From positions 1-21,661 of the IMG/VR virus record IMGVR_UViG_3300009104_000136: a stretch of DNA of 21,661 bases; one strand, given 5' to 3'. This document shows positions 1 through 16,138 of this stretch, piece by piece. The translations under genes and the position numbers were made by a program. The stretch comes from a virus. The first letter of the stretch is position 1. The number at the start of each line of letters is the position of its first letter. The notes under the pieces are model-generated. The model did no database searches, was not told the DNA's origin, and was given only the letters and a program-made list of their open reading frames with translations.

Positions 1-3000
1 ATTCCTGTTTCCATTTCTATTTCATATTTTTTTCTAAGTTCTTCTGGTGTAAAGAATCCACCTCTTCTATTATAACTTGGTAGATTATAAATTTTATCTT
101 TATATTCTACGCCTATAGTTTTAGCAGTTACAGGATTACCTTGCTTATCTTGTAGAACTAAACCTAATCTAATTGTATCTAAATGATACTGTTGATTAAA
201 GGTTAAAGGAGTAGTACCTTCTGCATATTTTTTTCTACCACCTATTAAACCACCACCATACTTCTTAGTCCTAGGGGTTATATCAACATCTAAACCGGCA
301 ATAACATGGAAAGGTTGACCAAGATTCTGACTTAGTTTACGAGACATCTTAGCTAAATCTTCTGGAGTAGGTGTTGGTAGTCTTTTAATATCCTTAAGAC
401 CACGCCAACTAATAGGAGCATATTCTATTGGAATGTAATATTTTACTAGTTCTTCAATTAAATCATCAATATCCCCCACGTGTGGGTCGAGATACTTAAT
501 ATTATCCTCATAAGGTAAGCGATATAACATATCTATCTGAGCTTGAAAAGCTTGTTTAATTCTATCATTCCATTCTAATATTCCATTATGACCCCACTCC
601 ATTCTAGTAGCTGTAAGATCAGCTAATAATTCTGTATCAGAACGAGTATCATTATTTCTAAAACGATAAGCTTTTACCATATCAGATGCCATAAACTTAT
701 TAGCATTAATATTATTTTCATTTACATAAGAAAATAAATCATGGAATGCAAGCACTTCAGGAAACTTTTCTTTAACATTATCCTCTTTCTCAAAAGCTTG
801 TCTAACAGCTTTCACACGATTTTGATAGTGTGTTACGTAATCAAGAGCTTTATTATAAATAGCATCACTATAAGCTTCTTGTACTTTATTTATATTAACA
901 GGATTAAGCATTGGATTATCTGCAACTACTTTTAAATGTTTAGCACGTTTTATAGCTAAAGCAATATTTTCTACCTGACCCTGTGCTTCTTTTAATAATA
1001 TACTATTAGCTGTACCAAAATCAAATGATTTAGCTAACTCAGAATTTTCTAACATCCCTATTCTTTCTTCTAATTTAAATAATCTCGCTGTTTCTAATAA
1101 ATCTCTTTGAGGACCTTCAACAATTGTAGCGTGTTCTTTATGAATCTTTTCTATTTCATCAACAGCTCTTAAAAAAGAACGCTTAGATATTTCACTTTTT
1201 AATCCACTCTGTTTTATAATTTCTCTAAATCCTTTAGAAACTATACCACCTGTCATAAATTTCTTTCTAGTTAAAGGGTTATTAACTAACTGTGGTTCAT
1301 TAGTACTAACAGCAAATTGAGTAGGATCAAATATAATATAAGCGTACCCTCTTTTCTTTCCAACTATACTTCCTACTTTAGTAAGTGCTAAACGAGGAGC
1401 ATGTTGTATTTTATATTGAATACCATCAAAACCCATCATTTCTAATAGCTTTATAATATTACGGCTTTGTAAATTTCTAGATAAGGTATATAAGGCAGTT
1501 TCTGAACCTTCCGGTAAATCTTTATTCTTAGGATTTTTTATAAATGCATCGATTATATCATCATAAACTTGATTCTCAGCCACCGCCTGTTTTAATAGAG
1601 AACGAATTTCTTTATCGCTTACTTTAGCCTGTGTAAGTAAAGATTTACTAACTGTTTCATCGTTAATAAATGCATCTAATACTTCTTGTGGACCCCAAGG
1701 ATATAAATCTTTTTCTAACTTTAAAGGGTTTATCATTCTTATATAACCATCAAGTCGAGTAGTTTGTGGTACATCTAAACCATTTACTTGTAAATAATTT
1801 TGTAATGATTCAAATGATACACCAATTTCTTTATGTACTAAATCTTCTGTAGAACGTCCAAGTCTTGCATTAATATTTTCTAATCTTTCAAAATTTCCTT
1901 TAGCTTCATCTCGTAATATCTTTCTTAATCTTTCAAAATTACTAATAATTCTACGTGCTGGAAGTAATGATTCTTCCATCCCTTCTTTAATATCCCGATC
2001 CATCTTTAAAGCTTTTAATTCAGCTTCAACTTCCATCATTGGTCCGGATGTTCTAAGGTCTTCTTCAGTAACTATTTTCATGCCCGGACCCATCTCTACA
2101 GCTTCTCCTTCTATTCCTGTTACTGCAGATGCTGGAAATTCTTCACTTCCTAAATCAGTATCCTGACGATAATCATACGGTTTATATTCTTCAGCCAAGT
2201 CTTCAATCTTAGCAACCTGTCCTTCCGGTGCTGATGTCTCTCTAGGAAATAATCCTAGATCAGCTTTAACTTCTTCAGTTATTTCTATTTCATTTTCATG
2301 TCGCTTAATAAAATTAGTTAATCCTTGCTGATCATCTATATCAAAATATTTTTCTATCTGTTGATTATATCTATCAGGTTTAAATACTACTCTAAATCCT
2401 ACAGGTTTACTAGTTATAGCTGGACCTTTATCAATCTCTGCATGATATTTAGGATCAAGTAAATATTTAGTGTTCTTAGTTTTTAAATCACTGTAAGCTG
2501 TAACATAACCACTTTTTTGTTTTACTATTCCCTTTACTCCTCCAATTTCTACATAATTTTTAGGTATGTTACTTCCCTGTTTTAAAGGTATGAATACTTC
2601 ACTAATAGAATTTTTTACATTAACTATACTATCATTAAAACCTAACCATCTATTATAATCTTTATCTTCTTTCCGCATTAATTCTCGCAATGCAACTTCG
2701 TCTAATTCAGGATTATCCTTACGTAATTTTTTATAGTTAGCTCTAATCTTAGGTAGAATTTTACTTCTTCTTGTTTCTAAATTTTCTAAAAATTTATTTA
2801 AGCGTTTAACTTTAGCTTCAGGATTGATTAACTCTTCCATATCAATAATAGCTTTCTGAATTCCCTTTGCAGTAGGCATGCCTGTAATAAACTCAGGTTT
2901 AGTCTGTCCTTTCTTAATTACCTGCCCAGTAAAATATGGACTTTCAGAATCATAACGATCAATCATTCTTGCTCTGAAAAGTAACTCACTAGAGTTGACA

Positions 3001-6000
3001 AAATTATTATCATTAATAGCAGTTTGTTGTTTATAAATTTCACGAATTTTAGCTAGAGCTTGATCATAATCAACCTTATGCTTACGCATATAATTTTGTA
3101 TAATGCTTTCAAAAAACTCTGGATTCTGTAGAGCATACTTATCATTAGTAAAATCTTTCCAATTTTGTAATGAAGGAAAAGCTCTTGCATTACTATCATT
3201 TAACCACATACCCTCTGCAAATATTCTATCTCCTGTATGTATCCCTATATTAGTAGAACGATCTAAAGCATCACTAACTGAATGCTGTAAATCACTTCTA
3301 CTAATATATGATACAGGGTGTTTCACTACTGATGAATTTAAAAAACTTTGAGTATCTTCAGTACCCAATAATTTCATAGTACTACGTGGTTGAATAATAT
3401 CAGTAGATAATTTATTACCAATTAATCTATCTAAATCAGGGTCTTTATCTATACTATTTATTAATAAATCTAAATCAGTTTCCTTTTTAAATAAAGATTG
3501 AATAATAGGTTTAACTAATCTACCAAAAGCAAAGCGTTGTCTATCGTCTGTATCTTGAACTATAAAGCCTGCAACATCACTAAAAGATACACCGCCTGCT
3601 CCGGGTATTTTTCTATCTTCTGGTTCTGTTTTAGCATTTCTAATATCTACTTCACCACCTCTTTTAAACCTACCACGAGCCTGTTCTTCTGAAATAATAA
3701 CATCAGGAAATATAGGGTCCTCTGCTTCTTTCTTAGTTCCTCTTGCCCATCTTCTTAAATCAGTTCTAGTATCAACTGGTAAGGCAGAATATCCGGGCAT
3801 ATTAGTTACAGCTAATTCTGGTATTCCCTTTCTATATTGAATTGTATCTACAACATCTTGCATTAATGGTCCAGTAGGTGTTTTTAGAAATATAGCTAAA
3901 CCACCACCACCAACTTGTGCATTCTCATAACCTCTTAATGCAAAATCCAGTGGACCTAATCCGCCCCAACGCTGTACAGCTTTCATAGTTACCCACGCTT
4001 CCTTACTTACAAACTCTGGTCTATTAGGATCACCTTCTTCCTCATAATCATAGGGATTACGTAAGTAGTTAGTTAATCCGGCAACCCCTGTCATGATTGT
4101 ACCTACAGCAGCCAGTTTAGGTAAATTCTGACTTGGATTTTTAGTAAGCTGATATATGCCCTCTCTTAAAATTGTATTATTAAAAGCTGTCGGATAACCT
4201 AAGAATTGAAATAACATTTGTCCTGCTGGATGAGAAAATATCATAGGCTTATTAGCTGAAACGGCTGACGGATTTAAAATAATTCCTCTTGAAAATCTTG
4301 CAGCTCCTCTACTAAAATAATTTTCAAAAAAAGTATCTAGTTGTTCTACTCCACTTTCTCGTTTAAAAACTTGTGGTGAACCTCTTTCTATCCAAGCTAA
4401 TCCTTCTTGAATAGGTATACCTAAATCGTGTAATTCTTCTGTTATCCTATTTTGTAAACGATCAAGTTTAATCTCAGGAATATCATCGTACTTAGTTTTT
4501 AATCCATTCTTTATTTTATATAAAGTTTGTAAATTATCTTTTATAATCGTTTTACCTATAGTATAAGCTCCGCCTTCAACCGAATGTGTCCAAGGAGATA
4601 GAATATTAGCATTAAAAAATCCTCTTTGTAGTTTCTGAGCCAGCTTACTTTGCATTCTTTCACCGCCAGATAAACCTTGTATTCTTTCAAATACATTCAT
4701 CTCATGAGCTAAACCAACACCATGTCTTTCTTGATACCATAATCTTTCTAAAGGACTATCAGGAATTAATAGGCGTTTACCCTGTTCTTCACTTAAACCT
4801 AGACGTTCTAAAAAAGCAGTTCTACCAGCATTATATGATTTACGACCTATATCATTAATACCATAACCTATAGCTTCTCCCATATCCTTCATCCCTTTAC
4901 CCCATTGATTAAAAGGAATCCTAGCAAAAGGAATAAAAGCTTCTGTAACACTTGATACAGTAGCTAAAGGTAAGTGAGCTGTTTGTTGACTTAAACGTAA
5001 CCAATCAGATGTACCTTGCATAACTCTAGAGCCTGTCCAAGTTTCCATAGTTGGCATGTCTATACCTAATACATAATCATATAATTGCATTAAAGCTTGT
5101 TCATCGGCAGCCTTTAAAGGAAAATCTTGATCGTCTAATTCTTGTTTTATCTTGGGTAAAATTTGATTTTTGAAAAATTCTTTATTACCTCTTAAAGTAG
5201 GATGTTTAGTTCTAGCCATTGAATGAGCTAGATTATTAGAATAATTAAGTAATACTTCAGTTATATCTTCTTCTAAGAAAGGAGCTTTTCTATCGTATGG
5301 TATTTTATTAAATACTCTAGGATTTAAATTACCAACACCTTTTTTAGTTCTTTCAATACCATCATCAAAAAACATTTGATCTTTGGTCAACATATTATCT
5401 ACAATATGTCTAGCTTTATCTCGTTCAGTAGCAAAGGGAGCAGTAATATCAAAATCATCTATAGTTTTAGCATCAAAAATTTCTTGTAATTCTCTTTGAG
5501 CTTCATTATAACTTAAATTTCTTTTAGCTTGCTGAACTCTCCCTGTAGATATATCAATAACTTCTTCAGTAGCATTTCTCATATATCTTTCTACTTGAAC
5601 TGGTGTAGGAGAAATATCTGCATAACCAAACTCTATTAAGTTATCTTCAAATTCAGTCCTATTATCTTTTAGATAGCGTTTATTATACATATGCGGAAAA
5701 TAATTTTCTCGCCAACTAGTCCTTTTTGCAATACCTGCATTTATAGCATCCTTAAAATGATTATTTAAAGCTTGACGAATTGCCGTAGCTCCTAGTAAAT
5801 CTTCTCCTGTTAGTTCAGGAGCATTTGGTCCTCCTTCTAACCACAATCTAATTCTATCATTACGTGCTTTAGACCAACCAACTTGCTTCATTCCGTCTAT
5901 AGGAAACTGCATTTCAGCTACATATTTACTTCTTTGTTGATGTAAAGTTTCATGGAAAGCAAAAGGTCTATATCGTCCTGCTAAACTTTCATACTTACTC

Positions 6001-7262
6001 CATTTAGTTAAAGGTTTATCCCAATCTTCTCTAACATCATCTAAAAATTTAAACATAGTTTCTGAACGTAAACCATATTCTCTTATCTGTGTAGTGGGCT
6101 TTCCTTGAGTATGAGCCATTAACCAATCACCATAATTAGCTGTAAATTTAGGAGATACTCTTTCAAATATACGACCAAATAAATTTTTATTAATTACTTG
6201 TTCTTCAAAATCTGCATCTTCAACACCTTCCATAGATATTCTAACTGGTGTATCAAACAAATCTAAATTTCTACCTTCAAGTTTTAAATCAGAATCTATA
6301 CCTTCCCATTCAGACTTCCTTCTAATTCGTTCTAATTCTGAAACTTCTAAATTATTAGATGATCTTATAATTCTATCTTCATCTGAAAATCTATCAATAA
6401 CACTTCTAGTTTGATTACTACGTGTAAAGAAGCGGGATATACCATATCCTATACCACCACCTAATAGACCTGTAAAGCCCCCAACTAAAGCTGTTTGTCC
6501 TAAATCAAAACCAGAATTTTGTAACCCTACATTAATATCTATATTTTGGAGAGCTGCGTCATGTCCTGTTCCCCAAACAAAACCTATACCAGCTTCTACT
6601 TTACCGATTCGCATAGCTTGTTGATGAGTAGTTAATTTTTTTAATCCTTCAGTTGCTGCTTTACCTGCTGCAAACCTAGCTCCAATACTACCACCACCTG
6701 TAACAAAACCAGCTAAGATAGCTAACATCATTGTAGGATCACTAACAAAATCTCCCCCTATATCAGCTATCGCTCTTACATAGTGTTCCATACCAGAACC
6801 TTTAAGGCTTGCTTTATCAAAGCGTTGACTTAAATATTCATAATCTTTTTTCTGACGATCTGACCAGTTTTTAGAAGCTAAAGCTATACTTAAAGCACTA
6901 TCTCCTCCGGGAAAACTAGTTAATGAATAATCGCTATCCCTTAAATATTCAAACATATCTTCAGGATCAATATCAGTTTCACCGATTGATTCTAAGAATC
7001 TCTCAGCAATTCGTACATATTCGGGATCGTTTTCTAAATCTAGGAGGGTTTCATTGATAGGAGATAAAGAACTAAAAGTTCTGGTAGGTTTTATAGCTGT
7101 GATATCGTAGCCAAGATTTAACTTAGTATCATCAGTATCGGGGATAGGGGCTAGTAAAGCTTCACCTAAATGGGTAGGAATAAGTCCAGTATTCTCTTCT
7201 TCCTCTTCTTGTTTAGGAGGAGAAGTTAATAGATCATATAAATCTACAGTATTAATTGACAT
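1..7262 (-). CDS. Giant internal virion protein candidate, at least 2420 aa (3' end outside window)
   Basis: I read the frame codon by codon from the ATG at 7262-7260 to the left edge and found no stop, so 2420 codons are present and the C-terminus is missing. Residues about 20-25 are an acidic run. Gly-rich hydrophobic segments lie near residues 165-190 and 255-275. A segment with the motif ENYFPHMYN is near residue 520, and another hydrophobic stretch (LAAVGTIMTGVAGLTNYL) is near 1045-1070, followed by GGLGPLDFALRGYENAQVGG. Residues about 1800-1990 resemble the ADP-ribosyltransferase-like domain of phage polyvalent proteins (separate entry). The gene starts 12 bases after the 622-aa gene, with a weak AAGAG ribosome site, the poorest in the last block. 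Last position in a structural operon, great length and Gly-rich hydrophobic segments suggest a T7 gp16-like DNA-ejection protein. I see no lytic transglycosylase motif. A polyvalent or antirestriction protein carried in the virion is the main alternative. Confidence 0.75.
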   Translation of the reverse strand, partial: MSINTVDLYDLLTSPPKQEEEEENTGLIPTHLGEALLAPIPDTDDTKLNLGYDITAIKPTRTFSSLSPINETLLDLENDPEYVRIAERFLESIGETDIDPEDMFEYLRDSDYSLTSFPGGDSALSIALASKNWSDRQKKDYEYLSQRFDKASLKGSGMEHYVRAIADIGGDFVSDPTMMLAILAGFVTGGGSIGARFAAGKAATEGLKKLTTHQQAMRIGKVEAGIGFVWGTGHDAALQNIDINVGLQNSGFDLGQTALVGGFTGLLGGGIGYGISRFFTRSNQTRSVIDRFSDEDRIIRSSNNLEVSELERIRRKSEWEGIDSDLKLEGRNLDLFDTPVRISMEGVEDADFEEQVINKNLFGRIFERVSPKFTANYGDWLMAHTQGKPTTQIREYGLRSETMFKFLDDVREDWDKPLTKWSKYESLAGRYRPFAFHETLHQQRSKYVAEMQFPIDGMKQVGWSKARNDRIRLWLEGGPNAPELTGEDLLGATAIRQALNNHFKDAINAGIAKRTSWRENYFPHMYNKRYLKDNRTEFEDNLIEFGYADISPTPVQVERYMRNATEEVIDISTGRVQQAKRNLSYNEAQRELQEIFDAKTIDDFDITAPFATERDKARHIVDNMLTKDQMFFDDGIERTKKGVGNLNPRVFNKIPYDRKAPFLEEDITEVLLNYSNNLAHSMARTKHPTLRGNKEFFKNQILPKIKQELDDQDFPLKAADEQALMQLYDYVLGIDMPTMETWTGSRVMQGTSDWLRLSQQTAHLPLATVSSVTEAFIPFARIPFNQWGKGMKDMGEAIGYGINDIGRKSYNAGRTAFLERLGLSEEQGKRLLIPDSPLERLWYQERHGVGLAHEMNVFERIQGLSGGERMQSKLAQKLQRGFFNANILSPWTHSVEGGAYTIGKTIIKDNLQTLYKIKNGLKTKYDDIPEIKLDRLQNRITEELHDLGIPIQEGLAWIERGSPQVFKRESGVEQLDTFFENYFSRGAARFSRGIILNPSAVSANKPMIFSHPAGQMLFQFLGYPTAFNNTILREGIYQLTKNPSQNLPKLAAVGTIMTGVAGLTNYLRNPYDYEEEGDPNRPEFVSKEAWVTMKAVQRWGGLGPLDFALRGYENAQVGGGGLAIFLKTPTGPLMQDVVDTIQYRKGIPELAVTNMPGYSALPVDTRTDLRRWARGTKKEAEDPIFPDVIISEEQARGRFKRGGEVDIRNAKTEPEDRKIPGAGGVSFSDVAGFIVQDTDDRQRFAFGRLVKPIIQSLFKKETDLDLLINSIDKDPDLDRLIGNKLSTDIIQPRSTMKLLGTEDTQSFLNSSVVKHPVSYISRSDLQHSVSDALDRSTNIGIHTGDRIFAEGMWLNDSNARAFPSLQNWKDFTNDKYALQNPEFFESIIQNYMRKHKVDYDQALAKIREIYKQQTAINDNNFVNSSELLFRARMIDRYDSESPYFTGQVIKKGQTKPEFITGMPTAKGIQKAIIDMEELINPEAKVKRLNKFLENLETRRSKILPKIRANYKKLRKDNPELDEVALRELMRKEDKDYNRWLGFNDSIVNVKNSISEVFIPLKQGSNIPKNYVEIGGVKGIVKQKSGYVTAYSDLKTKNTKYLLDPKYHAEIDKGPAITSKPVGFRVVFKPDRYNQQIEKYFDIDDQQGLTNFIKRHENEIEITEEVKADLGLFPRETSAPEGQVAKIEDLAEEYKPYDYRQDTDLGSEEFPASAVTGIEGEAVEMGPGMKIVTEEDLRTSGPMMEVEAELKALKMDRDIKEGMEESLLPARRIISNFERLRKILRDEAKGNFERLENINARLGRSTEDLVHKEIGVSFESLQNYLQVNGLDVPQTTRLDGYIRMINPLKLEKDLYPWGPQEVLDAFINDETVSKSLLTQAKVSDKEIRSLLKQAVAENQVYDDIIDAFIKNPKNKDLPEGSETALYTLSRNLQSRNIIKLLEMMGFDGIQYKIQHAPRLALTKVGSIVGKKRGYAYIIFDPTQFAVSTNEPQLVNNPLTRKKFMTGGIVSKGFREIIKQSGLKSEISKRSFLRAVDEIEKIHKEHATIVEGPQRDLLETARLFKLEERIGMLENSELAKSFDFGTANSILLKEAQGQVENIALAIKRAKHLKVVADNPMLNPVNINKVQEAYSDAIYNKALDYVTHYQNRVKAVRQAFEKEDNVKEKFPEVLAFHDLFSYVNENNINANKFMASDMVKAYRFRNNDTRSDTELLADLTATRMEWGHNGILEWNDRIKQAFQAQIDMLYRLPYEDNIKYLDPHVGDIDDLIEELVKYYIPIEYAPISWRGLKDIKRLPTPTPEDLAKMSRKLSQNLGQPFHVIAGLDVDITPRTKKYGGGLIGGRKKYAEGTTPLTFNQQYHLDTIRLGLVLQDKQGNPVTAKTIGVEYKDKIYNLPSYNRRGGFFTPEELRKKYEIEMETG
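1290..1860 (-). other. ADP-ribosyltransferase-like segment inside the giant protein
   Basis: Within the giant frame, residues about 1800-1990 contain, in order, HKEIGVSFESL, GYIRMINPLKLEKDLYPWG, MMGFDGIQYK and GYAYIIFDPTQF. From memory of the family, the ADP-ribosyltransferase domains of phage polyvalent proteins have the order [G-x-H-F near the start] - [KNPL-type strand followed by D-L-x-W] - [GYDG-I-x-Y] - [Y-I-V-F-D-P-x-Q]. The last three elements match well. The first matches poorly, since an S stands where H is usual. I infer an ART-like fold. Catalytic activity cannot be judged from this, and the domain may be a degenerate structural module. It is followed by KKFMTGGIVSKG, a Gly-Gly turn motif. 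Confidence 0.5.
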
Positions 7263-7274
7263 AAGTAGCTCTTG

Positions 7275-9143
7275 TTAAGAATCTAAAAATTCTTTAATTT
7301 CTTGTTTAGATAAATCTGGGTCTAATCCTAAAAGAGTTAATGCTTCTTTTATTTGTTTAGGTCTATACTTAACACCTTTAGTATAGTTTATTAATCTCTT
7401 ACGAGCATTTACTTGAGGAGCTTCTTCAACTGCTCTTAAAAATGGTTTTACAAGTATTTCCTCTCCACCTACTCCAGTATGAGCTGTTCTGGGTTTATCT
7501 CTATAACCTAATGAGCTTAATTCCTCATCAATATTTGGCGGTGGAGGAGGGGGTGGAGGTGGTGGAGGTGGAGGTGGGGGTGGAGGTGAACCAGTATCTC
7601 CTCCAATATCTTCTTTAGTATCTCCTTTTTCTTTTAGTTGAGGATTAATATAAGTTAAAAAAGACTGTTGTAATTCTTCTATTGTCTGCTCTGACATATT
7701 TCTAACTCTTGCCATCTTAGGTAATGTAAGTGTAACATACGTTTTTGCCATTTCTATTTTATCTTTTAAAGGTGCTGATTTAAATATATCTGTTGCGTTA
7801 AACATAATAGTATTTTTATCTGTTCCTCTACTAATTTCAAAAGGTGGTAATATTAATCTATTAGCTGCATTTGTATTCCAAGAATAATTTTTTAAACGTG
7901 TTCGTCCTATCATTCCATAAGTTTCCTGTATAGGATGTTCAGTTACAAAATGTTTTAATCCAAAAGCTGCTATCTCAGTTATACCTTCATTACGATTACC
8001 TTTAAATAATGAAAGATTAAAACGGTTAGTTTCTTCTCTAAGTTCTGCTGTAGTTGGTATATAATCACCAGCATGTTTACTTCTTAAGCTAAGACTAGCA
8101 AAAGTCCTCGATAAAGATTCACCAAATTCCGGATTCTCTTCCGCAATATTACGTAAATTAACTGACCATTTTGCCCATTCCTTGCCCATAAAAGTAGGAA
8201 TACCGTTTTCTATTAGTCCTGATTTTGCCCACGCTGTATCTAAAGTTTCTAGTAATTCCTCTGATATCTTAAATTGTGTAGGATTACGAGAAATTTGATC
8301 TATTATATTGATAACCCAAGGTCCAGCTTCCTCATCAGAAATTGTAGAAGAAGGACTTTTTATTAGAGCTATAGAAATTTTATTTAAATTTTCTTGTGTA
8401 GGAACAAAAGGTAAATCAGGTTGTATAGTATCCATTAAAGTTTTAAACTTAGGTAACTTATCTAGAGTTATATCATCTAATAATCTAAGTGAATTGTCTG
8501 TTTGACCCTCTCCTTTTCTCCAATTATTTATTCGTTTAACTCCTGCTTTCATTGAATTTAATAATTTACCTTGATCTTTAATACTATTTTTTGCCTGTTC
8601 AAGAGGTTCTTTATATAATTTCATAAGTCTTGGTAAATCCATATTATAGAGTTTATCCATCGTTAAACCTTCATCTAAATCCTGTAAAACTTCTAAAGAA
8701 GTTCCAACACTAGTAGTTAAGTACTTATTAAAATCATCTAGTATACTTTCGGCATATGCTCTTTGAAAAAGTGGTGACTTTCCTTCACCCAATATACCGC
8801 TTTGTATTAAACTATTTATTTTACTTTCTCTAGAGCCTGCTCCATCAACAATATTTTGTAGTGTTTTAGTATCTGTTAGTTTATTAAAAAGAGCCTGTGC
8901 CTTTGCTTCTGCAGACGCATTCCATGAATCTATTTCTTTAGTACGTTCTGTTGCTAAGTTTCTAGGAATACTAACTGCATTCATAAGAATACCATCCTTA
9001 CCTAACCAAGCGTTCCAGTCTTGTTCTTCTTTCCAATTTTTAAGACTGTCTTTCTCTCTCTTTTTTTGTCCTTGCCGAAGCAAGCTGAACATCTCACTCA
9101 TGTCCATGTTCATATTTACATTATCCCAAGGATTCTCTGCCAT
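7275..9143 (-). CDS. Virion protein with 17-residue poly-proline tract
   Basis: A 622-residue protein of unknown family, largely predicted helical and soluble, with no signal peptide or membrane segment that I can see. The N-terminus is rich in Met, Asp and Asn (NMNMDMSEMFSLL) and is followed by charged helices. Residues 520-536 are 17 consecutive prolines, preceded by a Gly/Asp/Ser-rich linker. An 86-residue C-terminal tail ends in a short helical region (SKQEIKEFLDS). The ATG overlaps the stop of the 208-aa gene as TAATG, with AAGGAG eight bases upstream, so translation is probably coupled. The place between a small conserved protein and the giant protein, and the length, recall T7 gp15 next to gp16, but I see no sequence motif that proves this. 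The poly-proline run would stall ribosomes without EF-P and probably acts as a stiff spacer between two domains. Confidence 0.8.
   Translation of the reverse strand: MAENPWDNVNMNMDMSEMFSLLRQGQKKREKDSLKNWKEEQDWNAWLGKDGILMNAVSIPRNLATERTKEIDSWNASAEAKAQALFNKLTDTKTLQNIVDGAGSRESKINSLIQSGILGEGKSPLFQRAYAESILDDFNKYLTTSVGTSLEVLQDLDEGLTMDKLYNMDLPRLMKLYKEPLEQAKNSIKDQGKLLNSMKAGVKRINNWRKGEGQTDNSLRLLDDITLDKLPKFKTLMDTIQPDLPFVPTQENLNKISIALIKSPSSTISDEEAGPWVINIIDQISRNPTQFKISEELLETLDTAWAKSGLIENGIPTFMGKEWAKWSVNLRNIAEENPEFGESLSRTFASLSLRSKHAGDYIPTTAELREETNRFNLSLFKGNRNEGITEIAAFGLKHFVTEHPIQETYGMIGRTRLKNYSWNTNAANRLILPPFEISRGTDKNTIMFNATDIFKSAPLKDKIEMAKTYVTLTLPKMARVRNMSEQTIEELQQSFLTYINPQLKEKGDTKEDIGGDTGSPPPPPPPPPPPPPPPPPNIDEELSSLGYRDKPRTAHTGVGGEEILVKPFLRAVEEAPQVNARKRLINYTKGVKYRPKQIKEALTLLGLDPDLSKQEIKEFLDS
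7536..7586 (-). repeat. Proline-codon tract (17 codons)
   Basis: Seventeen consecutive CCN codons on the minus strand, in all four forms CCA, CCT, CCC and CCG. The tract encodes residues 520-536 of the 622-aa protein. The + strand is correspondingly G-rich (GGAGGAGGGGGTGGAGG) and could form G-quadruplexes. Confidence 0.95.
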
Positions 9144-9769
9144 TATGCTACTCCTTCGTTTCTAGCTAGTAAACTACTTTGATTACCGCCTAGTCGTTGC
9201 TGTAATAAACTTTCCTGTTCATCTGTTTTATTAAAATCATCTAAAGCATCTTGAATAGTTGGTGGTAATTCTGTTCGTGGCTTTTCAATATCAACTTTTA
9301 AAGCTTCGTCAAATAAATTACTTCGTAAAGCTGCATTACGACTATTTAAATTTTGTAATCTAGTATCATCCGTTTCTGCTAAATCTGAATCTTCCTCATT
9401 ACTTTCTATTATAGGATCAATTCCTTCTTTTTCTGCTATACCTAAGAATACATAGGTTAGTGGTTCTATCATTTGTAATGCCATATCAGGATTCCACTTA
9501 CCCATATAAATACCTGCTTTAGTAAACATATTTACTAAAGAACGAATAGGGATACCATCAGACATAGCTACAACCATTTCAATATAAGTATTAGGTTCTA
9601 ATATATCTGCAACTGATCTATCTACAGCTTCTCTAAAATTAGTAATTTCAGGAGGACGCTCCCAAGGTCTAGGTTCATCTGGACTATTCGTTAACGATTG
9701 TCCGGGGATAGGTCGATTAAAAGGATTAACAGTTTTGACTGCATCTTCATCTATAAAATTATTAGACAT
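9143..9769 (-). CDS. Conserved marine-phage virion-associated protein, 208 aa
   Basis: A 208-residue protein whose N-terminal part contains RPIPGQSLTNSPDEPRPWE, followed by RPPEITNFREAVD. A PGQSLTNxP...PWE.PP opening followed by a helical domain (here EMVVAMSDGIPIRSLVNMF, then KAGIYMGKWNPDMALQMIE) is one I recall from many cyanophage and pelagiphage proteins of unknown function encoded among structural genes. The C-terminal third is acidic, polar and probably disordered. It overlaps the stop of the 376-aa gene by eight bases and has AAGGAGA eight bases before its ATG. Its stop overlaps the next start. In size and place it could match T7 gp14, but that is inference only. Confidence 0.8.
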   Translation of the reverse strand: MSNNFIDEDAVKTVNPFNRPIPGQSLTNSPDEPRPWERPPEITNFREAVDRSVADILEPNTYIEMVVAMSDGIPIRSLVNMFTKAGIYMGKWNPDMALQMIEPLTYVFLGIAEKEGIDPIIESNEEDSDLAETDDTRLQNLNSRNAALRSNLFDEALKVDIEKPRTELPPTIQDALDDFNKTDEQESLLQQRLGGNQSSLLARNEGVA

Positions 9770-10892
9770 TATAATAATCTCCTTGTGATTGTCCTAAGTT
9801 GTATTCAAATGTCGGAATACTTCCAATTGTTTTAAACCTAGGTGGATTATATCTAGGAATATAATATTTCCAATCATCCATATTAGCCGAAAATATACCC
9901 CCATGAAGAGGTAGATTCATTAAATTAGCCATTTGGTTAGGATCAGTTAAATTTGTAAATTGTAGATCACCACCTTTAAATATTTCTTTAGTAGCTTTAT
10001 TAATTTGTTCCTTATGTGTATTTGGACTAGAGGTAAAGAAACTCTCAGGTGATACAAAATTAAAACCACCTAAATTTTCTCTATCGACATTCGTATCAGA
10101 TTCTGATATAGCCATATGTGCAGCTATGTTTAAACTATTATTTGCCTGTCTTTGTCTGTATTCTGCTAATTCTTCTTCTGTCATTCCAGCTATCAATTCC
10201 TCTGTAGCAGCAGTAACACCAGCAGTACCTGTAACAGCACTAGTTACTTTCTCCACAGTAGTAAGAGATTTTTGAGAAGCTGTAGCATCTTTAGCTGCTT
10301 TAGCTGCCTTATCTAAATTATCTTGATATTTCTCTATATTACTTCTATGAACTTTAACTGTTTCTCCAGCTTTCCATTCAGTTTTAGGATTCATTTTTAC
10401 GATATCTTCGGCACTCATTCCTGTTTGTTCTGCTAGTAATTCTATAGTATCGCCTTCCCCTAAAGTAATATTTCTAGTAAAAGGATCACCTTCTAAGCCA
10501 GTCATACTTCTAAGTTGAGAGTGTGCTTTCTCATAAAGATTTGCTAATCTGTCACCTAAACCCATATCTTTTCCACCGGGTATAAGATTTAAACTTTCTT
10601 TAATTCCACTAGTAATAGAACTATAAACTTTACCCGTTGCATCTCCTGCCCATTTAATAGTTTTAGCCATACCATCAAAAACTTTATTTCCAAAAAATGT
10701 TTTATCTGCAAAAAATTTCCAATTCGCATTCATAAACCAATGTGATATATAGGGAGCTACAATTGCCATGCCTAAATATCCTAAAGGTCCTAACTTACCA
10801 ACAAATTTACCAATTTTAGAAAAAGCCTTTCTAATACCCTTTCCTAATTTTTTTATAGGTTTTAAAATCTTTTTAAATACTTTCTTAAACAT
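9762..10892 (-). CDS. Virion protein with cationic amphipathic N-terminus and LysM-like segment
   Basis: A 376-residue protein. Residues 1-35 are very rich in Lys and hydrophobic residues (MFKKVFKKILKPIKKLGKGI onwards) and resemble an amphipathic membrane-active helix. A short hydrophobic Gly-rich stretch follows at about 35-53 (LGPLGYLGMAIVAPYIS). Residues about 141-182 look like a LysM domain: NITLGEGDTIELLAEQTGMS, then EDIVKMNP and an AGETVKV end. LysM domains bind N-acetylglucosamine-containing glycans such as peptidoglycan. An Ala/Lys-rich helix follows (about 186-240), and the C-terminal part is rich in Asn, Pro and Tyr and ends in a Gly/Gln/Tyr segment. No catalytic hydrolase domain is visible. 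It begins two bases after the 905-aa stop, and its ribosome site GGAGGAGG is made from the final Gly codons of that gene. A role in crossing the envelope during ejection is plausible but inferred. Confidence 0.8.
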   Translation of the reverse strand: MFKKVFKKILKPIKKLGKGIRKAFSKIGKFVGKLGPLGYLGMAIVAPYISHWFMNANWKFFADKTFFGNKVFDGMAKTIKWAGDATGKVYSSITSGIKESLNLIPGGKDMGLGDRLANLYEKAHSQLRSMTGLEGDPFTRNITLGEGDTIELLAEQTGMSAEDIVKMNPKTEWKAGETVKVHRSNIEKYQDNLDKAAKAAKDATASQKSLTTVEKVTSAVTGTAGVTAATEELIAGMTEEELAEYRQRQANNSLNIAAHMAISESDTNVDRENLGGFNFVSPESFFTSSPNTHKEQINKATKEIFKGGDLQFTNLTDPNQMANLMNLPLHGGIFSANMDDWKYYIPRYNPPRFKTIGSIPTFEYNLGQSQGDYYNV

Positions 10893-10894
10893 TA

Positions 10895-13612
10895 CTATCC
10901 TCCTCCAAGGAAATTATCCAATATACTAGTTATGGAACTTAAATTACTAGACCAGCCTTTCCCTTCATAAGCTGCTGAATCATTACCAAGAGCAGCTACC
11001 ATCAAAGATGCTTTACGTGATAAATCATTATCTGAAACTTTAAAAGCAAAATCCATTTCATCTCTAGTTTCTTGCCACAAATTCGATAATTGTTGTGTAC
11101 TTAATTGAAAAGCATTTTGTGCATTCTGTTGATTAATAGAGTTCTGGGCAGCCGTATTAATTGTATTGGCTTGTCTACGCCATTGTACATTAGATTGTTC
11201 AATAGCTTGAGCATTCTGCACATTAAACTGTTCCTGTTGAAAATTAATTTGTTCATTAAACTGATCTATCTGTGCTGCTAATTGACTATTAGCTAATGAA
11301 ACTTGTGTACCTAACTGTGCCCTTTGAGCTTCAGCAGCATTCTGTTGGGTTGCATTAAATTGTTGCATTGCATCATTTCTAGCAGCATTATTAACATCTA
11401 CCTGCGTTTGTAGATTTGCCATAAATTGATTAGTCTGATTTACAGATGTTGAATTAAACTGTCTTGCAGCATTTTCAGCAGCTTGATCAGATAACATTCG
11501 TTGTTGATCTAATTGAGCTTGTAATACAACACCCTGCTGTTCATTATTAAGATTTGCCATATCCATCTGTAAGAAGTTACGTGCATTCTCTATTGATCTC
11601 TTAGTATTCTGATCAGCAGTAGCCATATCTAACTGTGCCATTATTGTAGCTTGTTGCATCGCTGCTTGCTGTTTCTGTGAAAAATCTTGTAGAGTAGTTG
11701 TCTGCATAAATTTACTATTAGCTAACTCAACTTGTTGAGCTGTAGTAAATTTCGTCATATCCATATTAGCTGTTACTGATGCATGTTGCATAGCACGTTG
11801 CTGATCTACATTTAATTGAGCAACACCTAATTCTTGAGCCAGTTTAGCATTTAATGTATTAACTTCTAAACGAGATTGTAAATTTGCCAACTCAACTTTT
11901 TCGTCTGCCGAGAGTTGTTCTGAAGCTGCTTGGTTCTTTGAAGTTAAGTTTGCTAATCTCATCTGTTGATCATTAGATAAATTAGCTAATTCCATTTGTT
12001 GTGCAAATGCTGTATTCTTAGCTAAGAAATCAGCAGCAGTCTGGAACTGAGTTAATCTACTTTGTTGAGCTTGCTGGGCTGTAGTTAAAGTAGCCTGTTG
12101 CATAAACTCACCTTGTTGTAAAGCAACTTGTTGAGCCATAACCGCAGTTTGTCTAGCTGCTTCTTGACTATTAGCAAGATTTTGTAATCTTAATTGTTGT
12201 CCATTCTGAGTTTCAGCTAACTGAGCTTGTTGTTCATTTGATAAATTTTGAGTAGCTCTTTGTTGTATTGCTCTAGCATTTTCCTGTGCAATACTAATAC
12301 CATTTTGAATAATAGCATTAAATAAAGCATCTCGTCCAACTGTAGAAACATCTAAACCTCTATCAGCCATTATTTGATTAACTTGATCTACTGCAGGTTT
12401 AGCCCACGTTGGAACTTCACCAGCTTCCAAGCCACCTAGTAATGCTTCTAACTGAGCAGACACTAAAGCTTCTGGTGGTAAGGCAGCAGTTGCAGCCTGT
12501 ACCGTAGTAGTTTGATTATCTAACTGTGCTATAAAAGTTGTAGGATCATCTAATATAGCTGCACTAACATCGGAAGGTAATTCAGCTACGAAGTTTAATA
12601 AATCCTGTGCAGTTTGTGTAGCTGATAAACCTCGTGACGATCTTTCAGAAGCTGTTAAGAAAGTAGGTACACCTTGTATCTGTCTTTCATTTCCTTGAGC
12701 TTGTGTTCCTGTTAATATAGCTCTCGATTGCTGTTCAGCTTGTGGCGTTTGATTTACAAGACCACCAGTACCTGTTACTTGTGTAGCAAAAGCACCAGCA
12801 CTTAAAGCTCCTTCAACATTTGTTGCTTTAGCTGCATTCATTTGCTGTTCTGTTGGAGCAGTAACAGCAGTTGCTCTTTCTCTTTGTTGTATAGCTCCTA
12901 TTTGATCTACTTGTTGAGAGACAGCTCCCTGTGCTGCAGGACCAACAGCAGCTCTTGCAGCCTGTGCAGAATCATAAGTTTGTGCTGTAATTGGTTCACG
13001 CTGCCCAATACGTTCCGCAGGACTAGCAGTAAATACATCTCTTCTAGCAGCTTGAGCAGAAGGACCACCCACCTGCCCATACTGTTCTTGCATTTGTTTA
13101 GTGTCAGCTTCTAGTTCTTCATCCCTGACCATTTCCCAGCGTCCACTTGGTTTATCTCTATACCAGTCAGCTCCTATCTCTTGATCATCTCCTATTCTAA
13201 AAGGTCCTTTAGTTCCCGGAGGACCGTAAGGTTGTATTTCATGTGGAACCCAAACTCTTTTATATCCTGCTTTAACAGCCGGAGGAAGTTTAGCTGCTTC
13301 CGGTACTTTTCCTTCTAAAGCTCTTTTTGATACTGCATCATAATCAGCAATACGTCCTGCTCTTTGTCCTAATTGTTCCTTACGAACTTCTGGGGTTATA
13401 GGTCCTTTATCTGCATCAGTTACTCTCCCCGGATATGGAACAGTACTTGGTACAGGTCCAGATGCTGTACTTCCATCACTAGCACGGTGTCCAGCTTCAT
13501 TTGGATTATGTGGAATCCAACTACTTGATTCACGTTCATAGTTGTGACTACCCCTATGATACTTTGCTCTATCCTGTGTACCCTTAGTATATCTTCTTCT
13601 TCTTCTTGCCAT
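10895..13612 (-). CDS. Large Gln/Ala/Asn-rich protein with long hendecad repeat
   Basis: A 905-residue protein. The N-terminus is strongly basic (MARRRRRYTKG). Residues 30-330 are Pro-, Gly- and Gln-rich and probably poorly ordered. A compact helical region at about 330-449 contains WAKPAVDQVNQIMADRGL and STVGRDALFNAIIQNGISIA, a segment I associate with structural proteins of Mediterranean metagenomic phages. Residues 450-845 form an unbroken 11-residue repeat (separate entry). The last 60 residues return to ordinary composition and end in LGGG. There is no signal peptide or transmembrane segment. The start has GAGGTGA about eight bases upstream and lies directly after the 80-aa gene. A fibrous, tape-measure-like or ejection-channel role fits the repeat, and an internal scaffold of the tail is equally possible. 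Function is unknown. Confidence 0.82.
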   Translation of the reverse strand: MARRRRRYTKGTQDRAKYHRGSHNYERESSSWIPHNPNEAGHRASDGSTASGPVPSTVPYPGRVTDADKGPITPEVRKEQLGQRAGRIADYDAVSKRALEGKVPEAAKLPPAVKAGYKRVWVPHEIQPYGPPGTKGPFRIGDDQEIGADWYRDKPSGRWEMVRDEELEADTKQMQEQYGQVGGPSAQAARRDVFTASPAERIGQREPITAQTYDSAQAARAAVGPAAQGAVSQQVDQIGAIQQRERATAVTAPTEQQMNAAKATNVEGALSAGAFATQVTGTGGLVNQTPQAEQQSRAILTGTQAQGNERQIQGVPTFLTASERSSRGLSATQTAQDLLNFVAELPSDVSAAILDDPTTFIAQLDNQTTTVQAATAALPPEALVSAQLEALLGGLEAGEVPTWAKPAVDQVNQIMADRGLDVSTVGRDALFNAIIQNGISIAQENARAIQQRATQNLSNEQQAQLAETQNGQQLRLQNLANSQEAARQTAVMAQQVALQQGEFMQQATLTTAQQAQQSRLTQFQTAADFLAKNTAFAQQMELANLSNDQQMRLANLTSKNQAASEQLSADEKVELANLQSRLEVNTLNAKLAQELGVAQLNVDQQRAMQHASVTANMDMTKFTTAQQVELANSKFMQTTTLQDFSQKQQAAMQQATIMAQLDMATADQNTKRSIENARNFLQMDMANLNNEQQGVVLQAQLDQQRMLSDQAAENAARQFNSTSVNQTNQFMANLQTQVDVNNAARNDAMQQFNATQQNAAEAQRAQLGTQVSLANSQLAAQIDQFNEQINFQQEQFNVQNAQAIEQSNVQWRRQANTINTAAQNSINQQNAQNAFQLSTQQLSNLWQETRDEMDFAFKVSDNDLSRKASLMVAALGNDSAAYEGKGWSSNLSSITSILDNFLGGG
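11078..12265 (-). repeat. 36 tandem 11-residue (33-bp) repeats
   Basis: Dividing the 905-aa protein into blocks of 11 from residue 450 gives 36 consecutive units without an insertion or deletion, to residue 845. Typical units are QQLRLQNLANS, QQVALQQGEFM, QQMELANLSND, QQVELANSKFM, QQRMLSDQAAE and TQVSLANSQLA. Positions 1-2 favour Gln or Asn, position 5 is often Leu, Met or Val, and position 8 is often Leu, Ala or Phe. Units later in the array (such as FQQEQFNVQNA) are richer in Asn, Gln and Phe. An 11-residue period is the hallmark of hendecad, slightly right-handed coiled coils. At helical rise it would span about 59 nm. Confidence 0.8.
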
Positions 13613-13856: not shown

Positions 13857-14510
13857 TTAGTTCTCCTTAACTAATTCTTCTGTCTTTTCTATTTTAAAAC
13901 CTTTAAACCATGCTGGTAAGCCTAGAAAGGGTCTTGTATCAAACTTATTTTCTTCTGCTTCCTCTCCATTTACATCATTATAATGTAAAAATACTTGACC
14001 ACAGTTCTCTCCTTCAAAAGGTTCTCGCCAATGTTCTAATTCACAACCACGATACATAACCATATCTCCAGCTTCCATTAAAATAGATGTTCCTTTTTTT
14101 CCTGTATCACCAGTTGAATCTAAAAATAATTCCCAAGGATCACCTCCTAAGTTTAAAGTACCTGATATTTCACAACTATACCGATCTTTATGTCTTTTTA
14201 AAATATCTCCTTTTTTATAGATACGAGCATAACTATAAGTAGGATAAAGTTTAAAACCACTTTCTGCTTCCATTCGTGGTAATAGTTTTTCTAATAATGT
14301 CTCCATTACTATATCACTATAATGGCTATATGTTTCTGGAATTTGTGAATCATTCCACACGCCCCAATCTTCATTAAACTGAGAAATATATAGACTATCA
14401 TAAAACATTCTTGCTACTTTTCGTTTAGTTAAAAAATAATCATAACAAAAGTTAGCCATTTCTTCTGATATAGCTCTTTTAACTATTAAATACTTATCGT
14501 CTTTAAACAT
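13857..14510 (-). CDS. 2-oxoglutarate/Fe(II)-dependent oxygenase (second copy), 217 aa
   Basis: The 217-residue protein carries the facial triad of the superfamily: H107-x-D109 in LKRHKDRYS and a distal H160 in CELEHWREPF, spaced as expected for a double-stranded beta-helix core. YARIYKKGDIL before the triad and GQVFLHYND after it fit the strands of the core. Members use 2-oxoglutarate and O2 to hydroxylate or demethylate a substrate. The substrate here is unknown. It overlaps the end of the first oxygenase gene by eight bases, with AGGA about eight bases upstream. The two proteins differ strongly in sequence, so they are not a recent duplication. Related genes are common in tail-fibre regions of cyanophages, where their substrate is also not established. 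Confidence 0.85.
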   Translation of the reverse strand: MFKDDKYLIVKRAISEEMANFCYDYFLTKRKVARMFYDSLYISQFNEDWGVWNDSQIPETYSHYSDIVMETLLEKLLPRMEAESGFKLYPTYSYARIYKKGDILKRHKDRYSCEISGTLNLGGDPWELFLDSTGDTGKKGTSILMEAGDMVMYRGCELEHWREPFEGENCGQVFLHYNDVNGEEAEENKFDTRPFLGLPAWFKGFKIEKTEELVKEN

Positions 14511-15126
14511 AAGGTTGTCCTAAACTCCAACATACTAAAGAATGTCTTATCCCTCTAGTAACTGGTTTTACTCTATGCCACACAAACGAAGGAAATATAA
14601 TTAAACTTCCTCTTGGTCTAACTTCTTCACAAATAGAAGGTTGTTTATTTCCGTCATTATCATGGAATCCAAACTCTACATCTCCACCTTCGTATTCTTC
14701 TGGCTCACTTAATGATAAAATTAAACTTAACTTTCTTATTTTACCATTTGTGTTTGGATCATCAGGTTTATCATAAGGAGTTGGATTACTATCACAATGC
14801 CAATCATAAAACTGTCCTTCTTTATATTCAGTATATTGACAAGATTCTGACCAATCCCATTGAAAATTCCAATTAGCTCTTTCATTTGCCAGTTGAATAA
14901 AAGGTTGTAGTTCTCTATATAACCAATATCCTGAAAGCCACACAACATCTGATTTTCTTTTTTTCTCTATACTTTCTAATTCTTCTTCTGAAGGAGGATT
15001 ATTCTTTACATGTCCTCCTGTTAATCCCTTCTCTTTAGAAAAGGATTCTCCTGTTTTAACTATTTCATCACAAATACTTAAAGGAATAGCTTTAGTAAAA
15101 TACCAATAATAATCCTGTAAATTCAT
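14503..15126 (-). CDS. 2-oxoglutarate/Fe(II)-dependent oxygenase, prolyl-hydroxylase-like, about 207 aa
   Basis: From the ATG at 15126 the protein has 207 residues. It shows H110-x-D112 in FYDWHCDSN, distal H184 in FVWHRVKPV and R194 in GIRHSLVCW, the Fe(II)-binding triad plus the arginine that binds 2-oxoglutarate. EGGDVEFGF and PRGSLIIFPS are typical core strands of the prolyl 4-hydroxylase-like PKHD group. A frame extension upstream to 15150 begins with TTG inside the preceding gene. The ATG giving MNLQDYYWYF lies eight bases after that gene's stop and is the better start, although its ribosome site is weak. The substrate is unknown. A peptide or glycan in the virion or cell surface is a possibility suggested only by position among fibre genes. 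Confidence 0.87.
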   Translation of the reverse strand: MNLQDYYWYFTKAIPLSICDEIVKTGESFSKEKGLTGGHVKNNPPSEEELESIEKKRKSDVVWLSGYWLYRELQPFIQLANERANWNFQWDWSESCQYTEYKEGQFYDWHCDSNPTPYDKPDDPNTNGKIRKLSLILSLSEPEEYEGGDVEFGFHDNDGNKQPSICEEVRPRGSLIIFPSFVWHRVKPVTRGIRHSLVCWSLGQPYV

Positions 15127-15133
15127 AAAAAAA

Positions 15134-16138
15134 TTATCGCCATTCCCCAATTACTTTTTTATGAAATACTTGTTTATAATCCCAAACTCCACTAGCGTTA
15201 ACATTCGGTTCACTAACAATAACTATACCTGATCCACCTGCAGCACCAGTTCCGTCATTATCGGCTGGGTGTTCAGGAGTGGCTTGATCAGCACAAACTC
15301 CACCACCTCCACCACCTGTGTTAGCAACACCAGTTCCTAAAGTTGGTGATGGTGAGCCTTGGTGGTTTGCATCCCCAGCTCCACCTTTTTGAGCAGGGAA
15401 AATACTTCCTCCACCTGTAGTATGACCTCCTAAATATCCTTTATTAATTTTTCCTTCGGTTGAAGCAAGTTCGTGTGTAAATCTATAACCAGCTCCACCA
15501 CCACCAGAATACCAAGTTTTTGAGCCAGAAACAGTAGACATCTTAGCTAATCCACCTTGACCACCTATAGCGTTCCAATCGTTACCAAGTCCATCTGGAG
15601 TTTCATTACCACCAGTACCACCGGCTCCACCGCCTCCACCACCAGAGTAATAACTACTACCATTGTATCTTCCATGACCTCCATCATTTCCTTCAGGTGG
15701 ATCAAAACTACCTGAATTACCTGTTCCACCACCGGGATGTGCTGGGTGATTACCACCTGAACCACCACCGGAACCTCCATTAAGTGCTTCGCTATCTCCT
15801 CCAACAGCTAGACCACCAGCCCCACCACCACCAGATGATGTAATAGGAGTAGCAGAACCAAAAACTGAATCAGAACCAGAAGAACCTCTATTATTTGAAT
15901 CTGGAGCCCCTGCTCCACCTGCTCCAACAGTTACTGGAACAGGAGAAGTTGGAATTGGGTGAGCCGGAAGTTCTCTAAATCCACCTCCACCCCCACCACC
16001 ATGACTAGAACCACCACCACCAGCAATTACTAATAAATGACATTCGCTTGACATAGGATCGGCTGCAAAAGTTCCATTAGCAGTAAAGGTCGTTATCTTA
16101 GGTGTAATTGTAAAGTTTTTTCCTACTAGTCTAGCCAT
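15134..16138 (-). CDS. Glycine-rich tail adhesin-like protein B, about 334 aa
   Basis: The protein begins MARLVGKNFTITPKITTFTA and contains a strand-rich segment ending LLVIAGGGGSS, then about 230 residues of Gly-rich motifs (GGGGGGGF, GAGGAGAP, GGGGGAGGTGG). It closes with GGSGIVIVSEPNVN, GVWDYKQVFHKKVIGEWR and a stop. This plan, a VVAGGGG opening, a glycine-rich core and a IVIxEP...GVW end, is common in marine phage tail proteins. A start at 16147 is possible, but GGAG would then be one base from it. The ATG at 16138 forms TAATG with the upstream stop and has GGAG ten bases away, so I chose it. It is paralogous to the adjacent upstream glycine-rich protein. A receptor-binding tip role is inferred. 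Confidence 0.8.
   Translation of the reverse strand: MARLVGKNFTITPKITTFTANGTFAADPMSSECHLLVIAGGGGSSHGGGGGGGFRELPAHPIPTSPVPVTVGAGGAGAPDSNNRGSSGSDSVFGSATPITSSGGGGAGGLAVGGDSEALNGGSGGGSGGNHPAHPGGGTGNSGSFDPPEGNDGGHGRYNGSSYYSGGGGGGAGGTGGNETPDGLGNDWNAIGGQGGLAKMSTVSGSKTWYSGGGGAGYRFTHELASTEGKINKGYLGGHTTGGGSIFPAQKGGAGDANHQGSPSPTLGTGVANTGGGGGGVCADQATPEHPADNDGTGAAGGSGIVIVSEPNVNASGVWDYKQVFHKKVIGEWR

What the first reader, a model, noticed from the sequence alone, without database searches (positions are those of the whole stretch)
1290..1860. ADP-ribosyltransferase-like domain embedded in the giant protein
The ordered elements INPLKL...DLYPW, GFDGIQY and YIIFDPTQ match what I know of ART domains in phage polyvalent proteins. 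Such proteins are injected with DNA and act on host defences or transcription. The expected first-element histidine is replaced by Ser in GVSFESL, so the domain may be inactive or belong to a divergent group.
Basis: partly seen in the sequence, partly recalled or inferred. Interest (0 to 1): 0.7.

Follow-up and report, generated by a model that had tools for sequence, protein, structure and literature searches.

The report
Split ART-fold module in ejection protein
A marine short-tailed phage carries, inside the giant protein it probably pushes into the host with its DNA, a divergent domain related to ADP-ribosyltransferases that is cut in two by a ~490-residue insertion and lacks the usual catalytic residues, so it more likely binds something than modifies it.

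Summary
Single-protein Pfam scans find nothing. A leave-one-out HMM from related phages hits 1836-1985 at E 9e-6. A profile of the window protein and its twin matches canonical phage ARTs far beyond 150 shuffles. The AlphaFold model of a compact homologue aligns best to the C-terminal ART-like domain of the cyanophage A4 ejection protein, then mostly to PARPs and ART toxins. An ADP-ribosyltransferase fold is well supported.

GVSFESL is not element 1. By homology the N-terminal half lies ~500 residues upstream (strand 1 about 1317-1321, strand 2 IGIHTGD 1339-1345), split off by a 489-aa insertion. The His-to-Ser change is a misassignment; the real departures are strand-1 His to Tyr1319 (Arg in most relatives) and strand-2 Tyr to His1342.

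The protein is a gp16/LUZ24-like ejection protein; about 14 distinct contigs carry the module, and relatives add tandem ARTs or an inserted SLOG (cpYpsA) domain. Most likely a divergent, probably inactive ART-fold module ejected into the host; activity is untested. New variant of a known kind.

The parts
3..7262 (-). Giant ejection-type (internal virion) protein, at least 2420 aa, cut at its C-terminus by the contig end; the sister phage protein (P0003) is complete at 2569 aa
   Evidence: ORF call; PHROG 7348 E 3.8e-50, 6958 E 3.1e-12, 342 (T7 gp16-type internal virion protein) E 2.5e-6; 93% identical complete relative L003/L007
3543..7055 (-). Conserved ejection core, residues ~70-1240, shared by ~160 viral contigs
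   Evidence: family scan; weak tblastn to LUZ24-type 'particle protein' of Pseudomonas phages
3228..3476 (-). N-terminal half of the ART-fold module, residues 1263-1345, including a helix-rich lead, strand 1 (~VSYIS 1317-1321) and strand 2 IGIHTGD (1339-1345, His1342)
1761..3227 (-). 489-residue insertion (1346-1834) between strand 2 and strand 3 of the ART fold, partly coiled coil, no known domain
   Evidence: alignment A7; Pfam and PHROGs no match; L026 has a ~200-aa insertion at the same place
1803..1823 (-).
   Evidence: AF2 pLDDT ~37 here
1293..1760 (-). C-terminal half of the ART-fold module, residues 1835-1990: strand 3 GYIRMINPLKL, helical insert, GFDGIQY, YIIFDPTQF
   Evidence: leave-one-out HMM E 9.3e-6; phrog_7348 positions 1449-1608 E 7.5e-6; hhalign to canonical ARTs
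1413..1433 (-). GFDGIQY (Asp1946, conserved in nearly all members of the module family)
   Evidence: alignments
1317..1340 (-). YIIFDPTQ, late-strand motif; compare YVVFSPTQ in the PF18760 member of Dickeya phage JA11
273..962 (-). Degenerate zincin-like peptidase region (2101-2330): HDLFS at 2174, versus HELFH in the sister protein at 2175, plus a ~35-aa deletion
   Evidence: motif listing; alignment; dN/dS 0.73
7275..13612 (-). Neighbouring ejection/virion genes; 9143-9769 and 10895-13612 are homologous to HMO-2011 proteins at the gp24 and gp25 positions
   Evidence: phmmer E 2.4e-8 and 1.6e-38

Best explanation
The region is the C-terminal half of an ADP-ribosyltransferase-fold module embedded in the ejection protein of an HMO-2011-related phage. 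The fold is discontinuous: strands 1 and 2 lie at residues ~1313-1345, a 489-aa insertion follows, and strand 3 to the last strand lies at 1835-1990. The protein should be packaged in the head and pushed into the cell with the DNA (inferred from the gp16/LUZ24-like core, not shown). In the window the canonical strand-1 His and strand-2 Tyr are Tyr1319 and His1342, so I think it most likely works as a non-catalytic or strongly altered ART-fold module that binds NAD+/ADP-ribose derivatives or a host protein; in relatives canonical ART or SLOG domains in the same polypeptide would supply catalysis (inferred). Shown: homology, fold of a relative, location in the protein family, split arrangement at profile level. 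Inferred: ejection, ligand, inactivity.
For: Same module at the same place in eleven of the 80 loci, plus further contigs from the module scan. Leave-one-out HMM E 9.3e-6. hhalign family versus canonical ARTs 34.6 and window pair 32.4, against shuffle maxima of 17.0 and 16.7. AF2 of homologue L066: pLDDT 77.5, pTM 0.74. VIA-align best hit 9k3a_B (cyanophage A4 pre-ejectosome) Z 7.5, 133 residues, rmsd 3.9, then MbcT Z 5.0, PARP1 and NatT Z 4.6, mostly PARPs to rank 43. BFVD hits are polyvalent/ART-PolyVal proteins at E 2e-4 to 1e-2; even the poor window model ranks a 'PolyVal ADP-Ribosyltransferase' second, E 0.049. N-half located at 1285-1350. Both halves under purifying selection, dN/dS 0.13 and 0.37, core 0.23. 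Other ejection proteins of the family carry more canonical ARTs: L034 27.7 bits and L098 22.1 bits to PF18760.
Against: No Pfam match, and PF18760 not found in the window. Foldseek against PDB finds no ART for the L066 model, and Z 7.5 is within the range that unrelated models can reach. The window model is poor (pLDDT 49.6) and its alignment already placed the N-half upstream, so it is not independent proof of the split. The N-half match alone is weak (single-sequence domain E 0.0045). Profile-profile E-values are for one comparison, not a database, and cover only the GxDG-to-FDxxQ part. Equivalence of Tyr1319 and His1342 to the catalytic positions rests on alignment, without coordinates in hand.
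Confidence: 0.6

Rival explanations
1. Active but non-canonical ART: the module still uses NAD+ to modify a host protein, with Arg (most relatives) or Tyr (window) in strand 1 and His in strand 2, as the T4 Alt-type R-S-E clade uses a different triad from H-Y-D.
For: Arg aligned with the strand-1 position in most relatives (LYRAI, VYRTI, VRYM); Asp of GxD conserved; purifying selection on both halves; the Alt clade shows that other triads work (PMC5512222).
Against: The window has Tyr, not Arg, in strand 1; L013/L012/L023/L098/L099/L101 also have Lys or Arg in place of the strand-2 His; the residue before YIIFD, where PARPs carry their catalytic Glu (own knowledge), is Ala1974 in the window.
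Confidence: 0.25
2. One reading: a compact ART from GVSFESL (1814) to YIIFDPTQ (1982) in which the catalytic His is Ser1816.
For: IGVSFES superficially resembles IGVHLST and has similar spacing to the NPL strand.
Against: The homologous-N-half profile scores -0.8 bits here and 11.6 bits at 1285-1350; L026 shows the same lead sequence and VGAHVGD upstream of its own insertion; AF2 confidence is low at GVSFESL; even in compact relatives this motif is strand 2, not strand 1.
Confidence: 0.07
3. Purely structural piece of the ejectosome: the ART fold is kept as scaffold in the pre-ejectosome and has no ligand.
For: The closest structural match is part of a packaged pre-ejectosome (9k3a_B); catalytic residues vary while the fold persists.
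Against: The shorter relative L006 and most of the 80 loci lack the module, so it is not needed for ejection; relatives carry more canonical ARTs or an inserted cpYpsA nucleotide-binding domain at the same place.
Confidence: 0.2
4. Not an ART: chance resemblance of short motifs.
For: No Pfam match; Foldseek PDB search negative.
Against: Shuffle-controlled profile comparison, leave-one-out homology and fold comparison all point to ART.
Confidence: 0.06

Closest known systems
ART domains of polyvalent proteins (Pfam PF18760 ART-PolyVal; Tox-ART-HYD2 clade, Iyer et al. 2017, PMC5512222)
   Same: Fold, order of elements, GxDG...Y(V/I)(V/I)FxPTQ end (JA11 YVVFSPTQ versus window YIIFDPTQ), place inside a giant multidomain virion-type protein, neighbouring zincin motif in the sister protein
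   Different: No match to the Pfam model; strand-1 His and strand-2 Tyr not conserved; split by a 489-aa insertion; long helical segment between strand 3 and GFDG
C-terminal domain of the cyanophage A4 (Anabaena phage A-4L) ejection protein ORF27, PDB 9k3a chain B
   Same: Best structural match of the homologue L066 (Z 7.5); also near the C-terminus of a podovirus ejection protein
   Different: A4 keeps canonical LYHGT and GTYFS motifs; no sequence similarity detectable by single HMM
T4 Alt (injected ART, R-S-E clade)
   Same: An ART-fold protein delivered with DNA
   Different: Different triad and clade (PMC5512222); not compared by sequence here
PARP1 catalytic domain, MbcT and NatT toxins
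   Same: Fold-level similarity to the L066 model, Z 4.5-5.0
   Different: Canonical catalytic residues; cellular proteins
T7 gp16 / LUZ24 gp50-type internal virion proteins
   Same: Core residues ~600-1150 match these families
   Different: The shorter relative L006 and most family members lack the ART-fold extension

Membership tests
ART-PolyVal (PF18760) / Tox-ART-HYD2 | Match to the Pfam model above its gathering score | tested here: not met
   no PF18760 match at E up to 10 in the window or L001 record; no Pfam match above cut-off
ART-PolyVal (PF18760) / Tox-ART-HYD2 | Detectable homology to members | tested here: met
   hhalign window pair v canonical set 32.4, shuffles max 16.7; family 34.6, max 17.0; covers the GxDG-to-FDxxQ part only
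ART-PolyVal (PF18760) / Tox-ART-HYD2 | ART split beta-sheet fold | tested here: inconclusive
   supported in homologue L066; the window's own model is low-confidence, though its top BFVD hits include a PolyVal ART
ART-PolyVal (PF18760) / Tox-ART-HYD2 | Histidine in strand 1 (PMC5512222) | tested here: not met
   aligned position is Tyr1319 in the window, Arg in most relatives
ART-PolyVal (PF18760) / Tox-ART-HYD2 | Tyrosine in strand 2 (PMC5512222) | tested here: not met
   His1342 in the window; His, Lys or Arg in relatives
ART-PolyVal (PF18760) / Tox-ART-HYD2 | Aspartate in strand 5 (PMC5512222) | tested here: inconclusive
   Asp1946 (GFDG) and Asp1979 (FDPTQ) are conserved, but which is the clade's catalytic Asp could not be fixed without coordinates
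ART-PolyVal (PF18760) / Tox-ART-HYD2 | NAD+-dependent transferase activity | not testable with these tools
   needs biochemistry
Podovirus ejection (internal virion) protein, T7 gp16/LUZ24 type | Homology of the core to that family | tested here: met
   phrog_6958 E 3.1e-12, phrog_342 E 2.5e-6; LUZ24-type tblastn E about 2e-4 to 3e-3
Podovirus ejection (internal virion) protein, T7 gp16/LUZ24 type | Packaged in the virion and ejected | not testable with these tools
   inferred from family and gene position next to HMO-2011-like virion genes
Zincin-like metallopeptidase of polyvalent proteins | HEXXH motif with downstream Glu | tested here: not met
   window has HDLFS; the sister P0003 does have HELFH...TEVLAD; no Pfam match for either

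The most novel reading that the evidence does not exclude
A family of ejected, catalytically dead ART folds acts as a sponge or blocker: it binds NAD+/ADP-ribose signal molecules or ADP-ribosylated host proteins to blunt NAD-based antiphage defence in the first minutes of infection, with SLOG (cpYpsA) or canonical ART partners nested in the same polypeptide in relatives.
Probability: 0.15. Interest if true: 0.75.

Novelty: new variant of a known kind. Interest (0 to 1): 0.45.

Why it matters
Head-packaged ARTs have been proposed for many phages, but they are found mainly with profiles that need intact motifs. This family shows ART folds in ejection proteins that those profiles miss, broken up by large insertions and with altered catalytic residues, next to canonical ARTs and a nucleotide-sensing SLOG domain. 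It gives a defined set of proteins in which to ask whether ejected ART folds modify host targets or merely bind NAD-derived molecules.

Tried and rejected
Pfam, PADLOC and PDB-sequence searches of the whole protein: nothing relevant. tblastn of the ART region and of the near-twin against 50,697 phage records: no match even at E 10. Foldseek of the L066 model against PDB: only background GNAT-like matches. Automatic MAFFT alignment A4 put the N-half of compact members near residues 1716-1735; rejected because the profile scores that segment at -1.2 bits and because A6/A7, with long-insert members given as two pieces, place it at 1339. Candidate source phages for phrog_7348 (HMO-2011, HTVC010P, HTVC024P, phiR18, A-4L, RPP1) do not contain it. 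The A4 ejectosome paper (PMC12002296) is not held.

Full report
OBSERVATION. The window is a whole 21,661-base viral record. INPLKL is at 1844-1849, DLYPW at 1852-1856, GFDGIQY at 1944-1950, YIIFDPTQ at 1975-1982 and GVSFESL at 1814-1820. Pfam finds nothing in the protein and PF18760 (ART-PolyVal) is not found even at E 10. PHROGs gives phrog_7348, 6958 and 342 over the first half (an endolysin-labelled giant family and T7 gp16-type internal virion proteins).

RELATIVES. A near-twin (93% over most of its length) gives the complete protein of 2569 aa. A distant one, L006, has the ejection core but no such module. An alignment of the three recovered 161 viral contigs with the same core, 80 of them kept. 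A profile of the motif region then found the same module, directly after the core, in L012, L013, L023, L026/27, L040, L041, L049, L050 and L066. A module scan added L093, L094, L098, L099/100 and L101. To avoid circularity I rebuilt the profile without the window and its twin; it still hits P0001 1836-1985 at E 9.3e-6 and P0003 at 1.4e-6.

IS IT AN ART? Seven canonical ARTs were taken from phages: six by PF18760 hits in the Dickeya JA11, RPP1, SecTim467, Atu_ph07, L034 and L098 records, and A-4L (13.1 bits). hhalign of the module family against them scores 34.6, and of the window/twin pair alone 32.4. Column shuffles of the ART set reach at most 17.0 and 16.7 in 150 trials; the reversed set gives 11.0 and 13.7. 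The aligned part is the GxDGI...Y(I/V)xFDxxQ half. AlphaFold2 of the compact homologue L066 is good (pLDDT 77.5, pTM 0.74) and shows strand-helix-strand-strand, a helical segment, then three strands. The best VIA-align match is chain B of the cyanophage A4 pre-ejectosome (9k3a; Z 7.5, 133 residues), then an anti-CRISPR (Z 5.3), MbcT (5.0), PARP1 and NatT (4.6), and mostly PARP domains down to rank 43. Z under 8 alone would not prove kinship, but A-4L ORF27 reads LYHGT...GTYFS...GVDAL...VINPDAV over that stretch, a plain ART by its motifs. BFVD gives polyvalent and ART-PolyVal-like proteins at E 2e-4 to 1e-2. Foldseek against PDB gave no ART.

ANATOMY. In compact members the order is a lead, strand 1 (VYRTI/LYRAI), strand 2 (IGVHLST), strand 3 (KGYVRMVRPLDL), helices, GYDGI and FDxxQ. 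So the IGVH motif is strand 2, not strand 1. In the window the homologous lead and strand 2 are at 1285-1345 (...ALDRSTNIGIHTGD). L026's own N-half (LLGLDREPELDEL...YSTMVGAHVGD) aligns to P0001 1263-1351 at domain E 7.7e-5. L026 too has an insertion (~200 aa) between strands 2 and 3. The window model gives the IGIHT block pLDDT 77 and GVSFESL ~37; its alignment already favoured this, so it is supporting, not independent. The insertion, 1346-1834, matches no known domain.

CATALYTIC STATE. The polyvalent ART clade is defined by His in strand 1, Tyr in strand 2, Asp in strand 5 (PMC5512222). By alignment the window has Tyr1319 and His1342. L040/L041/L049/L050/L066/L093/L094 have Arg and His; L012/L013/L023/L098/L099/L101 have mostly Arg in strand 1 (Met in L023) and Lys or Arg in strand 2. 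The Asp of GxD is kept. The window/twin comparison shows purifying selection on both halves (dN/dS 0.13 and 0.37; core 0.23). I infer a maintained but probably non-canonical or inactive ART fold. Activity has not been tested.

CONTEXT. Neighbouring genes match HMO-2011 proteins at the gp24, gp25, gp43 and gp44 positions, and the giant gene occupies the place of gp22, although no homology to gp22 itself was seen. The core matches internal virion proteins, so packaging and ejection are likely but inferred. In relatives the same C-terminal platform carries other things: a PF18760-type ART in L034 (27.7 bits) and, in L098, the module followed by a PF18760-type ART and a third YHGG-type ART; cpYpsA (PF12694) inserted between GYDG and FDxxQ in L040/L050, and DUF7831 after it in L040/41/50/66. 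Viral SLOG/YpsA domains are proposed to act on ADP-ribose-type signals (PMC9503650), which makes an NAD-related role for the module plausible.

MECHANISM AND NOVELTY. Best reading: a split, divergent ART-fold module carried into the host by the ejection protein and acting by binding rather than by canonical ADP-ribosylation. This is a new variant of a known kind. It is not filed as a Tox-ART-HYD2 member because two defining residues were tested and not met; that it works like an ART in some respect (ligand pocket) remains open.

Noticed in passing
window 729-743 (-), region 273-962; L003 P0003 residue 2175: The sister protein has a zincin-like HELFH...TEVLAD motif; the window protein has HDLFS and a ~35-aa deletion there, with relaxed dN/dS (0.73), so the peptidase looks recently lost.
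   Followed up: partly
window 3-240 (-) versus L006: The last ~75 residues (KYAEGTTPLTFNQQYHLDTI...) are very similar to distant L006 but different in the 93% twin P0003: C-terminal module swapping.
   Followed up: partly
L040 10869-13223, L050 7603-9963: A complete cpYpsA (SLOG) domain, PF12694 E ~1e-27, sits inside the ART loop between GYDG and FDxxQ, followed by DUF7831.
   Followed up: partly
L098 ORF 2-3721 (+): Three ART-type modules in tandem in one ejection protein: degenerate (407-605), PF18760-like (744-922) and YHGG-type (~1000-1122).
   Followed up: partly
window 13857-14510 and 14503-15150 (-): Two adjacent 2OG-Fe(II) oxygenase-like genes; the PHROG label 'ferrochelatase' is probably a misnomer.
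   Followed up: no
P0001 residues ~1202, ~2004, ~2330: Short GG-containing tags (RGGEVDIRNA, FMTGGIVSKG, GGGLIGGRKKYAEGT) recur between modules here and in relatives (KGGLV, EGGQV); possible linkers or processing sites.
   Followed up: no
window 7275-9143 (-): A long run of prolines (about 17) in the neighbouring ejection-module protein.
   Followed up: no
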